A stretch of DNA of 64,000 nt from Paenibacillus durus ATCC 35681 (GTDB taxonomy: Bacteria; Bacillota; Bacilli; Paenibacillales; Paenibacillaceae), in contig NZ_CP011114.1 of the NCBI RefSeq assembly GCF_000993825.1, positions 1,488,001 through 1,552,000 of the forward strand, given 5' to 3'. The notes below the pieces were generated by a model, which worked only from the letters and a program-made list of their open reading frames with translations, had not been told where the DNA came from and made no database searches. This document shows positions 34,343 through 37,849 of this stretch, one piece after another; within the stretch, counting starts at the first letter, position 1; every line of letters starts with the position of its first letter. The translations under genes and the position numbers were made by a program.

Positions 34343-34427
<85 letters not shown>

Positions 34428-34636
34428 TCATATTTTACAAACAAAACCCTTCATTTGAAGGGTTTATTTTTTTGGCTTTTAATAGGTCATTGGTATATGT
34501 TGGGGGATAAAATAAACGCGTGAACTAATTTATTTTGCATTAATTAAAAGGAAAATATCGGAAGATGTCGAATAATCATTTATAGTAGGATGTATTCTTG
34601 AAAGAAAAATTATTGGGTGATTTGAATATCAACATA

Positions 34637-34664
34637 TCCTAATAACTCAGAATTATTTGGAGGT
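34637..34664 (+). repeat. Left inverted repeat, tyrosine-recombinase-like crossover site
   Basis: 28 bp, exact reverse complement of 36401-36428. Arms TCCTAATAA and TTATTTGGA (one mismatch when paired) surround an asymmetric centre CTCAGAA. The TTTGGAGGT at its inner end is the Shine-Dalgarno sequence of the gene starting at 34672. Confidence 0.88.
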
Positions 34665-34671
34665 AGATTTT

Positions 34672-35682
34672 TTGAGTTCAATTTTGGAAAATCGTTATAA
34701 AATTAAACTTATAATAAAGAATGATGATGAAGATTATGTCCAAGCCCTAAAAATATACAATGATGAAACTCCTCCTGAGATAAAAACCGAAAGTAATCAG
34801 ATTACTTATTGGATCAATAAGGATACAAGCAACTTTAACTTTAAATTCATGATTTTTACGGCTTATTTGGATAATGAAGTGATAGGATTTGCCGAAATCG
34901 CTTATTTTAATGTTCAGCCTAAGTTTGCATTAATTGATTATATGACTTTTAAAAAAGTCTACAAAGTTAATGCTGTATTTTTTCCGATATTTAACTTAAT
35001 TCAAAATTATATGAATAACAATTCTTTACATGTGGATTATTGGATCACCGAGATTAATCATAAGGAGGACGGTGCAAATATTGATAAAGAGAGTGCTTTT
35101 TTCAAAAAATTAATATGCATTGAGAATTTCGGAAGTATAAGTACAGATTATTTTCATCCCTCTTTGGGAGATAATAACTATGAGAGTTCATTCATAGCCA
35201 GACTTTATATAAAAACAAATGATAGTCTTAAACAACTTTCAAAACAAACCGTTTTATTTATAATCAAAACAATATATTACTCTTATTACTGGGAGTGGTA
35301 TAAGCCCTTTTCTACAGTTGATGCGATAAACAGTTATAAACAGCATTTGGATATCAATTTTGAAAAAATTAAAAAGAATTTAATTGATCAAGCCAATGTT
35401 TCTGTAGAATGTAGTAACTGCATGTTGGCAGAAGTTAATTCGCAATCAACTTCCGGAATAGTTCCTGCTAAAAAAGTAAAAAAGAAGTTTACTTTGCCCT
35501 TGATCCTAACTGCAGTAATTTTGTCTCCTTTAATTATCATGCTATTATACTATCAAATTTTTAAATTACTGGGATTTAATTTAGGTTCCACAACTATGAC
35601 CCCAGCTGTAGCCACAATTCTGGGTGCTGCTATATCAGGCTCTATTGGTATCTGGTCAACGACAAGAAAAAAGAGTGATTAA
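34672..35682 (+). CDS. GNAT-like protein with two C-terminal membrane helices
   Basis: 336 residues from TTG 34672, which has GGAGGT 7 bp upstream. Residues ~10-165 resemble a GNAT acetyltransferase (FTAYLDNEVIGFAEIAYF as strands 2-4, then LIDYMTFKKVY), but the acetyl-CoA P-loop is not clear. A middle region (170-265) has no recognised domain and includes a CSNC pair. Two hydrophobic helices (about 273-298 and 309-328) near a basic C-terminus anchor it to the membrane. Base composition is AT-rich. It converges on the methyltransferase gene with a 4-bp overlap, and both lie inside the inverted repeats. Function unknown. Confidence 0.75.
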   Translation: MSSILENRYKIKLIIKNDDEDYVQALKIYNDETPPEIKTESNQITYWINKDTSNFNFKFMIFTAYLDNEVIGFAEIAYFNVQPKFALIDYMTFKKVYKVNAVFFPIFNLIQNYMNNNSLHVDYWITEINHKEDGANIDKESAFFKKLICIENFGSISTDYFHPSLGDNNYESSFIARLYIKTNDSLKQLSKQTVLFIIKTIYYSYYWEWYKPFSTVDAINSYKQHLDINFEKIKKNLIDQANVSVECSNCMLAEVNSQSTSGIVPAKKVKKKFTLPLILTAVILSPLIIMLLYYQIFKLLGFNLGSTTMTPAVATILGAAISGSIGIWSTTRKKSD

Positions 35683-36392
35683 TGTTTACGACAAAGCATA
35701 ATGATATTATGGCTTCGATGGGCTAGGAAAGGAATATATTGGAATAATGAATCTGCAATGGCAAATTTAGTTGCTGAATTTTCATTTTTTAAGAGTTTGT
35801 AAAAGAAATTACTCAGAATATGAAACCTTTTGGTTTGTAATGATTGCAGTCCACAGCTCTTCAGTATTTCTGTAATATAGTTCATCGAGTATACCCATAA
35901 TATATGCTCTTCATTAAAATACTTAGTCTTTATGACAGCAGCAGATTCTTTATAAGCATCAGAATTAAAAAAGTCTATACTCCAACTGCTCTCAAATTCG
36001 AGTAAAAGATATCCACCGGGTTTTAGTATTCGCGATAGCTCAGAAATACATATTGATGCATCACAGTAGTTGATGACGCTTCCAACGCATATGGCAATGT
36101 CAAAAGAAGAAGCTGCAAATGGCATATTTTCTACGCTGGCAACGGAATACTTCGCGAATTTAGAAATGAACTTGTCGGTTATATCTAGATGGTGCATGTC
36201 GTACTTTAATCCGTATGTATTTCCCCCTGAACCTGCATTTAATATGTGCGGATTGTCTATAAAGATGTTATGTTTAGAAGCTATATATTTCTCGATTTCC
36301 TTTTTTGTATGGAGATGCCAGTTATCATCTTCTGGCCATATACTTTCCTGTGATTCATAAAACTCTTTTATTTGACTTGGATTTAATTTCAT
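35679..36392 (-). CDS. Class I SAM-dependent methyltransferase
   Basis: 237 residues. SAM motif I HILNAGSGGNTYG (residues 49-61), acidic end of strand 2 at HHLD, and VENMPFAASSFDIAICVG (motif II region) followed by LSRILKPGGYLLLEFE (motif III) fit the Methyltransf_11 type, often acting on small molecules. No DNA-methylase motif (NPPY/DPPY) is present. Start ATG 36392 uses a GGAGGT lying within the right inverted repeat. AT-rich codon use. On the minus strand it lies 48 bp behind the recombinase gene. Confidence 0.85.
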   Translation of the reverse strand: MKLNPSQIKEFYESQESIWPEDDNWHLHTKKEIEKYIASKHNIFIDNPHILNAGSGGNTYGLKYDMHHLDITDKFISKFAKYSVASVENMPFAASSFDIAICVGSVINYCDASICISELSRILKPGGYLLLEFESSWSIDFFNSDAYKESAAVIKTKYFNEEHILWVYSMNYITEILKSCGLQSLQTKRFHILSNFFYKLLKNENSATKFAIADSLFQYIPFLAHRSHNIIMLCRKH

Positions 36393-36400
36393 AGTTTAAA

Positions 36401-36428
36401 ACCTCCAAATAATTCTGAGTTATTAGGA
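36401..36428 (-). repeat. Right inverted repeat, tyrosine-recombinase-like crossover site
   Basis: Exact inverted copy of 34637-34664, with arms TCCAAATAA and TTATTAGGA around TTCTGAG on the plus strand. With the flanking AAA and TTTTTT it also folds as a terminator-like hairpin (AAACCTCC/GGAGGTTT). It carries the Shine-Dalgarno sequence of the methyltransferase gene. Confidence 0.88.
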
Positions 36429-36439
36429 GGTTTTTTGCT

Positions 36440-37378
36440 TTATAATCTCAAATTATTCCTGGGGTTAAACTTGGTGAGGACATCCTTTTTTCGTTCTACA
36501 GATACTTCCGTATAGATTTGTGTAGTGCTGACGCTGGTATGACCAAGAATCTCTTGAACGGAGCGCAGATCGGCGCCGTTATTTAATAAATGAGTCGCAA
36601 AGCTGTGGCGTAAATAATGCGGCGTTGATTTTTTGCTGATATTGGATAGATCTCTGTACTTTGAGTAGATGTCCTCAATGGAATAAATAGAAAGCCGTCC
36701 ACCGTATTTGTTAATGAAGAGTGCATTTGACTTGGGTTTGAGATGTTCTCGAACGCTAAGCCACATTTGAATTTTGTTTATGACCTCGCTGCTTGAAATG
36801 TACAGGAGGCGTTCCTTTCTCCCTTTTCCGAAAATTAGAATGGTTCGCTCCGCGAAATCGATATTCTCCAGATCAATCGAAACCAACTCTCCAATTCGGA
36901 TTCCAATTACATACAACAGCTCGATAATGGCATTATTTCGTGTACAGATCCATTTTCTAAAAGATGTATGCAATTGCTTCATATGTTCCTGGGGGGAGTT
37001 TAAGAGTCTTTCAACTTCAGTTACGGATAATGTTTTAGGAATGCGTTTGGATGTTTTGAAATGTTTGCCGAAGCCAGAGACAGGAGAATCGGGCAATTCT
37101 TCTTTTTGCACCAAATAATTAAAAAAAGCTTTGATGCAGATATATTTTCTTTTGATGGTCGAATCCTTTAGCTGATTTTTGCCTGTCAGATCCTCCAGAT
37201 ACATGCGCAAATTTTGTTTGGTCACCGTGTTGAAGGATTGATGATTGTACCACTCAAGCAAGCCATTCATGTCTGAAAGATAGGCCTTAATCGACTTCAA
37301 AGACAAGTTGCGTTCCACGCTTAAATAAAGCTCGTATTGTTTTATGTATTTAGTCAAACGGGTGATAGTTAAATCCAT
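36440..37378 (-). CDS. Tyrosine site-specific recombinase (XerC/D-like)
   Basis: 312 residues: N-terminal core-binding SAM-like domain (residues 8-95) and catalytic domain (115-300). All catalytic residues are visible: Arg161 (GIRIGE), Lys185 (FGKGRKER), His254 and Arg257 (HYLRHSF), His280 (LGHTSVSTTQ) and nucleophile Tyr289. It lacks the arm-binding domain of lambda-type integrases and so resembles Xer enzymes and simple invertases. ATG 37378 follows GGAGGCA. Its 3' end is 12 bp from the right inverted repeat, suggesting that the repeats are its targets. Confidence 0.92.
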   Translation of the reverse strand: MDLTITRLTKYIKQYELYLSVERNLSLKSIKAYLSDMNGLLEWYNHQSFNTVTKQNLRMYLEDLTGKNQLKDSTIKRKYICIKAFFNYLVQKEELPDSPVSGFGKHFKTSKRIPKTLSVTEVERLLNSPQEHMKQLHTSFRKWICTRNNAIIELLYVIGIRIGELVSIDLENIDFAERTILIFGKGRKERLLYISSSEVINKIQMWLSVREHLKPKSNALFINKYGGRLSIYSIEDIYSKYRDLSNISKKSTPHYLRHSFATHLLNNGADLRSVQEILGHTSVSTTQIYTEVSVERKKDVLTKFNPRNNLRL

Positions 37379-37849
37379 GTTGCCTCCTGTTGGATGTTTT
37401 TTTGGTTGTTTTATGTATGGAAGAGGAACTTTAATTATTACGCAGCTTACTTCATTTGTGAAGTAAATGGATCGGTATTTTTCGGTGCTAAACCATTTGC
37501 TATTCGAAAGGCTGTTGCAAAGAGGGGCAGACGGGTTAACTCAAGGTTAGATAAATTCATAAATTGTTCCTGCGTGACGAGACCTTATTTATGAAATACA
37601 GAGGTGGGGGGGCAGATTTCGCAACTGGCAATCCTGGAGAAGGACCGAATGGTTTCCTGAAATGATATTTTTTGTTTGGTGAGGGAAAAGAAGTATGGGC
37701 CAAGGCTAATAAGCGCGAAGCCTAATTACGGTCTCACCGGCGATTTCATTCTAAGCCACATGCGAAAATGCGCATGTGGCTCAGAGTGATGAATCGGATG
37801 TTAGCACCGGTATGCCGGATGACAGAGGAAGCATCACTTAAAGATTTGG
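37379..37849. other. Gene-free stretch at the right side of the island
   Basis: AT-rich up to about 37600, then rising to the genome average. A perfect 11-bp hairpin (AGCCACATGCG at 37754-37764, CGCATGTGGCT at 37771-37781) without T tract is the only structure seen. A 66-codon ORF at 37394-37594 has no ribosome-binding site. No tRNA fragment was found. Confidence 0.6.

What the first reader, a model, noticed from the sequence alone, without database searches (positions are those of the whole stretch)
34637..36428. Candidate invertible two-gene cassette with its own tyrosine recombinase
Two convergent AT-rich genes (GNAT-like protein with two membrane helices; SAM methyltransferase) are bracketed by exact 28-bp inverted repeats, and an intact tyrosine recombinase gene ends 12 bp outside the right repeat. 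Inverting ~1.77 kb would exchange which gene lies next to the left flank and which lies behind the recombinase gene. Because each repeat carries the Shine-Dalgarno of the adjoining gene, either gene would keep its ribosome-binding site in either orientation. This would be an either/or expression switch. Seen: repeats, genes, recombinase. Known: RecV-type and other tyrosine recombinases invert segments between inverted repeats. Inferred: that this one does so.
Basis: partly seen in the sequence, partly recalled or inferred. Interest (0 to 1): 0.9.

Follow-up and report, generated by a model that had tools for sequence, protein, structure and literature searches.

The report
Flipping two-gene cassette with own recombinase
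A soil bacterium carries a pair of facing genes that a neighbouring enzyme can probably flip end over end, and relatives carry the same flip unit loaded with other gene pairs, including a known anti-virus system, apparently to control which partner gene is switched on.

Summary
Exact 28-bp inverted repeats bracket two convergent genes beside an intact tyrosine recombinase. The unit occurs in 34 of 394 family genomes. Cassettes stand in opposite orientation in G227/G245 (cassette 99% identical, flanks 95%), in G192/G217 (96% vs 85-86%), and within the single assemblies G060 and G386 (100%). In 8 of 34 genomes the contig ends in or just past the repeat. Contents are fixed gene pairs (GNAT-fold protein + methyltransferase; ATP-grasp + large partner; Thoeris TIR + SIR2/STALD; others); four of the five pair types seen in two or more genomes occur in both orientations. 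Similar units with homologous pairs lie on Streptococcus, Aliarcobacter and Methylobacterium plasmids with other repeat letters. New here: the recombinase-side repeat carries CCTCC (34 of 34), complementary to the usual Shine-Dalgarno GGAGG and predicted to lock it; the far repeat lacks CCTCC in 29 of 31. So the far gene should be on, and the recombinase-side gene off or coupled to recombinase translation. Expression was not measured, and strict either/or is doubtful because Thoeris needs both parts. Literature searches found no description.

The parts
34566..34572 (+). TGTCGAA motif, resembles a Spo0A box (consensus recalled), upstream of the far repeat
   Evidence: TGTCGAA within 200 nt upstream of the far repeat in 16 of 31 genomes, background 1.8% of AT-rich 200-nt windows; 13 of the 16 are one related group; function inferred
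34634..34664 (+). far (left) recombination site, 31 nt; outer arm ATATCC not complementary to the SD; inner arm carries SD GGAGG of the adjoining gene
   Evidence: possible -10 TATCCT 34635-34640 (by eye only)
34672..35682 (+). cassette gene A: GNAT-fold protein with two predicted C-terminal helices; at the predicted 'on' position in this assembly
   Evidence: found in 2 of 394 family genomes, both inside this platform
35679..36392 (-). cassette gene B: class I SAM methyltransferase; at the recombinase-side position
36401..36431 (-). recombinase-side recombination site, 31 nt; outer arm ACCTCC complementary to inner arm GGAGGT (hairpin predicted to lock the SD)
36440..37378 (-). tyrosine recombinase, 312 aa, reads towards the cassette
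   Evidence: relatives at E<=1e-70 in 34 of 394 family genomes
37434..37462 (-). promoter-like TTCACA-17-AATAAT upstream of the recombinase; similar letters by eye in a second genus group
   Evidence: the scan found fewer promoter-like sites than shuffles, so this is a lead only
34343..34427 (+). tRNA-Leu(cag) in the left flank, followed by a terminator-like stem 34444-34465; any far-side promoter should lie between that and the repeat (inference)

Best explanation
This is a site-specific DNA inversion switch. SHOWN by comparison: a tyrosine recombinase gene sits beside two inverted 31-nt sites, the segment between such sites exists in both orientations in relatives and within single assemblies, and sites, recombinase and cassette genes go together. 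INFERRED: the recombinase makes the crossover, in the 7-nt spacer, also in the window's strain. INFERRED from sequence and folding: transcription must enter from outside, because each site lies directly against the start codon of the gene it adjoins. The gene beside the far site has a free Shine-Dalgarno and is expressed from the left flank. The gene beside the recombinase has its Shine-Dalgarno paired with the fixed outer arm and stays off, or is translated only when ribosomes finishing the recombinase open the hairpin. Inversion swaps which partner of a conserved two-gene module is in the 'on' place. Whole cassettes also differ between close strains, so the locus is a platform that can be loaded with different two-gene (probably conflict or immune) modules.
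For: Opposite orientations: G227 vs G245 (L018/L022), cassette 99.1% over 3575 bp reversed, flanks 95%; G192 vs G217, 96.3% over 3494 bp reversed, near flanks 85-86%; G060 chromosome vs 17-kb contig, 3596 bp reversed at 100%, the contig being the deposited 'plasmid' NZ_CP010977.1; G386, 2263 bp in both orientations at 100% either side of a 100-N scaffold gap. Pair types: ATP-grasp gene recombinase-side in 10 genomes and far-side in 4; GNAT/MT 1 and 1; polyprenyl/membrane 1 and 1; Thoeris 2 one way and G386 both ways; aminotransferase/pentapeptide 2 and 0 (classes). Contig ends 28-88 nt past the recombinase in 8 of 34 genomes. In G325 and G390 both flanks stop at the base where the two cassette ends begin to differ, and the cassette is its own contig with the repeat at both ends. 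In G388 both ends of one cassette are joined to the same far-flank letters. Outer arm CCTCC at the recombinase side in 34 of 34 and at the far side in 2 of 31. SD opening energy 12.0 vs 4.0 kcal/mol on average, higher in the recombinase-side context in 50 of 52 gene-context comparisons. Same asymmetry with unrelated letters in two Aliarcobacter plasmids, 10.6 and 9.1 vs 3.6 and 3.8. Recombinase stop exactly 6 nt before the arm in 21 of 34 and inside it in 11 of 34.
Against: No reads, transcripts or proteins were examined; the window's own genome shows one orientation only. The genomes are related, so 34 of 34 is not 34 independent events, and the Wilcoxon value takes no account of that; G060 counts twice there. 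The two exceptions among the 52 are both genes of G064. Two genomes of one genus (G358, G325) have CCTCC on both sides, and G060's far site is also predicted paired. Some inner arms are not GGAGG (GGGGG, GGAGA, GGTAA). In one Aliarcobacter plasmid the difference is negligible (2.5 vs 1.7) and in Streptococcus small (5.4 vs 2.2), with the recombinase facing away. One pair type occurs in one orientation only (2 genomes). Contig breaks could come from the repeat alone if an assembler used very short words; G060 and G386 could in principle be mixed cultures.
Confidence: 0.78

Rival explanations
1. Cassette-capture platform: the inverted sites exist to swap whole two-gene modules between strains, both genes are expressed in both orientations, and inversion is a neutral by-product.
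For: Cassettes differ completely between strains with 97% identical flanks (L016 vs L018); a cassette can be more alike (96%) than its near flanks (85-86%); pairs stay together even at 44-52% identity; Thoeris, one of the pairs, needs both parts: the TIR genes alone did not deplete NAD (PMC11312562, passages).
Against: The two sites are not equivalent: CCTCC outer arm on the recombinase side in 34 of 34, on the far side in 2 of 31, and a similar asymmetry with different letters in two of three Aliarcobacter plasmids. A neutral by-product would not need this.
Confidence: 0.2
2. Reversed polarity: the recombinase-side gene is the expressed one, co-transcribed and translationally coupled with the recombinase, and the far gene is silent.
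For: The recombinase reads into the adjoining gene, and its stop codon lies inside the hairpin arm or exactly 6 nt before it in 32 of 34, which suits translational coupling. Far-side promoters are not proven; no sigma-70-like site was called on the + strand of the window's left flank.
Against: The hairpin would block independent initiation. The far side mostly lacks the arm, and in one group of 11 genomes it has conserved upstream blocks.
Confidence: 0.08
3. The repeats are ends of a transposon-like insertion and the neighbouring recombinase is unrelated to them; no ongoing inversion.
For: Short terminal inverted repeats around two AT-rich genes of narrow distribution would look like this.
Against: Both orientations inside single assemblies at 100% identity; the recombinase gene ends within 14 nt of, or inside, the site in 34 of 34; no further copies in the window's genome.
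Confidence: 0.02

Closest known systems
Tyrosine-recombinase inversion switches (RecV of Clostridioides difficile, FimB/FimE fimS, PsrA hsdS)
   Same: Tyrosine recombinase with short inverted repeats; segment found in both orientations (from abstract beginnings, and recall)
   Different: Here the inverted segment is two whole, unrelated, convergent genes that form a conserved pair and differ wholesale between close strains; each recombination site carries a ribosome-binding site, and one site has an arm complementary to it
Phage Mu G segment / Gin and P segment / PinQ (serine recombinases)
   Same: An outer promoter reads into an invertible segment holding alternative genes facing each other (layout recalled; only listings and abstract beginnings seen)
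   Different: Different recombinase family; Mu-type segments exchange versions of a tail fibre, here the partners are different proteins of one module
Integrons
   Same: Tyrosine recombinase with exchangeable gene cassettes next to it (recalled)
   Different: No array of direct repeats; one two-gene cassette between inverted sites
Thoeris anti-phage system (ThsA/ThsB)
   Same: G193 and G383 cassettes are ThsA (PADLOC E 4.9e-145 and 3.3e-97) plus a TIR protein; G386 falls in the same clusters
   Different: Described as an operon (PMC11312562, passages); here the genes are convergent in an invertible cassette. The window's own cassette is not Thoeris

Membership tests
Site-specific inversion switch (inverton) of a tyrosine recombinase | Inverted repeats flanking the segment | tested here: met
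Site-specific inversion switch (inverton) of a tyrosine recombinase | Tyrosine recombinase with its domains, adjacent | tested here: met
Site-specific inversion switch (inverton) of a tyrosine recombinase | Both orientations exist, breakpoints at the repeats | tested here: met
   in relatives and in two single assemblies; not in the window's own assembly
Site-specific inversion switch (inverton) of a tyrosine recombinase | Inversion depends on this recombinase | not testable with these tools
   only co-occurrence: relatives of one STAND protein in 6 of 394 genomes, all six carry the recombinase
Site-specific inversion switch (inverton) of a tyrosine recombinase | Inversion changes expression | not testable with these tools
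   predicted only: SD opening energies
Integron | Array of cassettes separated by direct attC repeats | tested here: not met
   one cassette between two inverted sites; two site copies in genome G000
Thoeris (for the window's cassette) | ThsA (SIR2/STALD or equivalent) and TIR ThsB | tested here: not met
   neither window protein gives a PADLOC hit
Thoeris (for the G193 and G383 cassettes) | ThsA and TIR ThsB side by side | tested here: met
   the ThsB match is weaker (E 4.3e-06 and 3.1e-08) than that to another candidate family, PDC-S66

The most novel reading that the evidence does not exclude
A cross-phylum class of flip-armed, reloadable immune platforms. Each holds one module (an enzyme or signal maker plus a sensor or effector) in convergent orientation between loxP-like sites that carry the ribosome-binding sites. 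At rest only the far partner is made; the recombinase transcript carries the other partner behind a hairpin that terminating recombinase ribosomes open. Induction of the recombinase would thus both flip the DNA and briefly supply the missing partner, so the module is fully armed only around inversion, and strains replace the module wholesale.
Probability: 0.3. Interest if true: 0.95.

Novelty: new variant of a known kind. Interest (0 to 1): 0.88.

Why it matters
Inversion switches usually turn one gene set on or off, or swap versions of one protein (recalled). Here a recombinase appears to flip the two halves of a conserved module, including a known anti-phage system, and position-specific RNA pairing built into the recombination site seems to decide which half is made. 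A similar layout with homologous gene pairs, but unrelated site letters, on plasmids of Streptococcus, Aliarcobacter and Methylobacterium suggests a widespread, unrecognised way of storing and switching conflict genes. It also gives a search rule for finding new two-gene defence candidates.

Tried and rejected
Phage and viral collections: recombinase matches in phages are all below 60% identity (38 records, 20 listed, none opened); no methyltransferase match in phages at E 1e-12; no exact site match in viral contigs. So no phage carrier was found, but distant ones were not looked at. PADLOC found no known defence family for the window's pair. Of 16 plasmid records with a recombinase match I opened 11: nine carry a platform-like cassette (H1, H2, H8, H9, H11, H12, and H4, H5, H13 via their methyltransferase hits), while Pusillibacter H3 and Pasteurella H14 are XerD/XerC-annotated genes in ordinary surroundings; five (H6, H7, H10, H15, H16) were not opened. 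Of 5 plasmid records with an ATP-grasp match three (Rhizobium, Peribacillus, Photobacterium) were not opened; of 234 with an SHMT match only the Streptococcus one was. L023 (44% recombinase) shows no such site, dropped. A tRNA-attached island was considered because of the tRNA-Leu, but of 33 related loci scanned only one holds any tRNA; rejected. A sigma-70 scan of the locus gave fewer hits than shuffles (10 vs 13.8), so no promoter is claimed from it. The G386 double unit was first read as a real duplication; the 100-N gap and 100% identity point to a scaffold of two alternative contigs. Searches for ATP-grasp/STAND literature showed nothing on point in their listings.

Full report
WHAT IS THERE. 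Exact 28-nt inverted repeats bracket two convergent genes, and an intact tyrosine recombinase gene ends 11 nt outside the right repeat. In ten simulated windows the longest exact inverted repeat was 16-18 nt. The repeat occurs only twice in the 5.58-Mb genome (up to 3 mismatches). The site is a 31-nt near-palindrome, two 12-nt arms and a 7-nt asymmetric spacer, of the size of classic tyrosine-recombinase core sites (recalled). The inner arm of each site holds GGAGG, the Shine-Dalgarno of the gene it adjoins.

HOW COMMON. Recombinase relatives at E<=1e-60 are in 11 of 100 genomes of the genus, and at E<=1e-70 in 34 of 394 genomes of the family, in 5 of 19 genera. All 34 have the site at or just after the recombinase stop; in G009 and G384 the contig ends inside it. 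The second, inverted site is in the fetched stretch of 25, with 1.7-3.6 kb between the sites, and was read from other contigs of 6 more.

IT INVERTS. Strains L018 (P. sp. LS1, G227) and L022 (P. xylanexedens, G245) have 95% identical flanks and a 3575-bp cassette, 99.1% identical, in opposite orientation with the change at the sites. G192 and G217 are a second such pair (96.3% cassette, 85-86% near flanks). In G060 the chromosome and a 17,061-bp contig carry the locus, 100% identical over the cassette, in opposite orientation; that contig is the deposited 'plasmid' NZ_CP010977.1 of Paenibacillus sp. IHBB 10380. In G386 two copies of the cassette in opposite orientation, 100% identical over 2263 bp, lie either side of 100 N. 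In 8 of the 34 genomes (G009, G162, G210, G234, G325, G384, G388, G390) the contig with the recombinase ends 28-88 nt after it. In G162, G325 and G390 both flanking contigs end on the same last letters; in G325 and G390 that is where the two cassette ends begin to differ, and the cassette is its own contig with the repeat at both ends. In G388 contig C8 has the same far-flank letters outside both ends of one cassette. The G234 record (L019) is named k141, which suggests an assembly with 141-letter words (recalled); a ~32-letter repeat would not break that unless both joints were present. These are signs of mixed orientation in culture, not read counts.

PAIRS, NOT ALTERNATIVES. All-against-all comparison of the cassette genes of 25 genomes gives fixed partners. 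An ATP-grasp gene (Dala_Dala_lig_C) is found in 14 genomes; its partner is in one ~800-aa cluster in 10 of them (two members scanned, AAA_16/TPR, STAND-like), in a second ~800-aa cluster in 3 (one member scanned, no Pfam hit) and unclustered without a Pfam hit in 1 (G182). The others are TIR with SIR2-STALD, that is Thoeris (3 genomes); GNAT-fold protein with SAM methyltransferase (this window and G377); polyprenyl synthase with a protein without Pfam hit that looks membrane-bound (2); aminotransferase with pentapeptide repeats (2); and single cases of SHMT-like or radical-SAM enzyme with STAND/TPR (families). Orientation is free: the ATP-grasp gene is recombinase-side in 10 genomes and far-side in 4 (G060 counted once, by its chromosome). 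GNAT/methyltransferase and polyprenyl/membrane occur once each way; Thoeris is TIR recombinase-side in G193 and G383 and both ways in G386. Aminotransferase/pentapeptide is the same way in its 2 genomes. As far as searched the genes live only with the platform: GNAT gene in 2 of 394 genomes, both platform loci; methyltransferase in 2 of 344 of the order, the same two; relatives of one STAND protein at E<=1e-30 in 6 of 394, all platform genomes, with at most 2 candidates scored per genome. In a search of 5.8 billion proteins the GNAT protein has 9 relatives besides itself. For 7 of the 9, a methyltransferase relative (best 120 of 607 listed) has the same longest-contig length, consistent with the pair staying together.

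CASSETTES ARE EXCHANGED. L016 and L018 have 97% identical flanks and no cassette similarity beyond the sites. In G192/G217 the cassette is more alike than the flanks. The recombinase-side flanks fall into nine groups without a match between groups, so the platform sits at several chromosomal places.

THE TWO SITES DIFFER BY POSITION. The outer arm on the recombinase side is CCTCC in 34 of 34; on the far side in 2 of 31 (G358, G325). Inner arms read GGAGG in most genomes (exceptions GGGGG, GGAGA, GGTAA), so the recombinase-side site can form a hairpin of up to 12 bp that buries the Shine-Dalgarno. Mean opening energy was 12.0 kcal/mol in the recombinase-side context and 4.0 in the far context, higher in 50 of 52 comparisons, each gene tested in both contexts; the two exceptions are the genes of G064 (26 loci including both G060 copies, related genomes not down-weighted). 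The recombinase stop codon is inside the arm in 11 of 34, exactly 6 nt before it in 21, 8 nt in the window and 14 in G210, which suggests, but does not show, translational coupling. Upstream of the far site TGTCGAA, like a Spo0A box, occurs in 16 of 31 (background 1.8%), 13 of them one related group.

BEYOND PAENIBACILLACEAE. Plasmid searches with the methyltransferase and GNAT proteins gave 3 records each, the same three, all with the pair beside a tyrosine recombinase. Streptococcus salivarius plasmids carry methyltransferase + GNAT-like, polyprenyl synthase + membrane-like, or SHMT-like + TPR pairs (matches to the Paenibacillus families E 3e-130 to 4e-26). Near-exact inverted repeats of 29-42 nt that contain an SD stand at the borders in the four records tested, S. 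equinus included; there the recombinase faces away. Aliarcobacter plasmids (Campylobacterota) carry GNAT + methyltransferase or ATP-grasp with other genes; two of the three cassettes seem to hold three genes. Their sites were read by eye for L118 and L122, which the repeat finder did not list among its five longest; it did list the L119 site (86%). In L118 and L122 the asymmetry is the same in other letters: recombinase-side opening 10.6 and 9.1, far side 3.6 and 3.8. The third hardly differs (2.5 vs 1.7), and Streptococcus weakly (5.4 vs 2.2). A Methylobacterium plasmid has recombinase, D-Ala ligase-like and convergent STAND-like genes (E 1.6e-69 and 1.2e-15). The same 17 letters, including the start codon, stand at both borders (read by eye; the repeat finder at 18 nt did not list it). 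Recombinases of the four groups are 28-41% alike between groups, and 26-36% like the two XerC/XerD controls, so common descent of the platform is not shown; homologous cargo is.

WHAT IS UNCERTAIN. No expression data. In the cited work TIR genes without ThsA did not deplete NAD (PMC11312562, passages), so a strict either/or state would leave a Thoeris module inactive; leak, coupling, frequent flipping or carry-over of protein must be invoked if the asymmetry is real. That the pairs are immune modules is shown by family only for Thoeris; for the window's own pair it is inference.

LITERATURE. Eight full-text searches aimed at this arrangement or its parts showed no description of it in their listings; two more were for background. 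Only the held open-access library was searched, and most lists were cut; apart from passages of two papers I saw listings and the beginnings of abstracts. PMC12529663 (beginning of abstract) remarks that recombinases often lie beside anti-phage genes with unknown function, which this finding bears on.

Noticed in passing
NZ_CP010977.1 (L076, L031), G060 contig C2: A 17-kb record deposited as a circular plasmid matches the chromosome at ~100% over most of the stretch compared, except for the inverted cassette; it is probably an alternative assembly of the chromosomal locus, not a plasmid.
   Followed up: yes
window 34566-34572 and far flanks of 15 other genomes: TGTCGAA (Spo0A-box-like) upstream of the far site, 60-70 nt away in the seven genomes where the distance was printed; possible link of the switch to sporulation control.
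   Followed up: partly
one search hit list: Many methyltransferase relatives in the 120 listed of 607 lie on contigs of about 1.7-2.0 kb, close to the cassette length, as if contigs break at inverting sites in many other bacteria too.
   Followed up: no
L116, L117, L120, L121, L123: In Streptococcus plasmids the recombinase gene is divergent from the cassette and a pezAT pair lies on its other side; an extended -10-like TGGTATACT stands just outside the far repeat in the four records read there.
   Followed up: partly
G008 (L030), G073 (L029), G009 (L126, by eye): Cassettes pairing an amino-acid-type enzyme (SHMT-like, lysine-aminomutase-like radical SAM) with a STAND/TPR ATPase: possible undescribed two-gene conflict systems.
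   Followed up: partly
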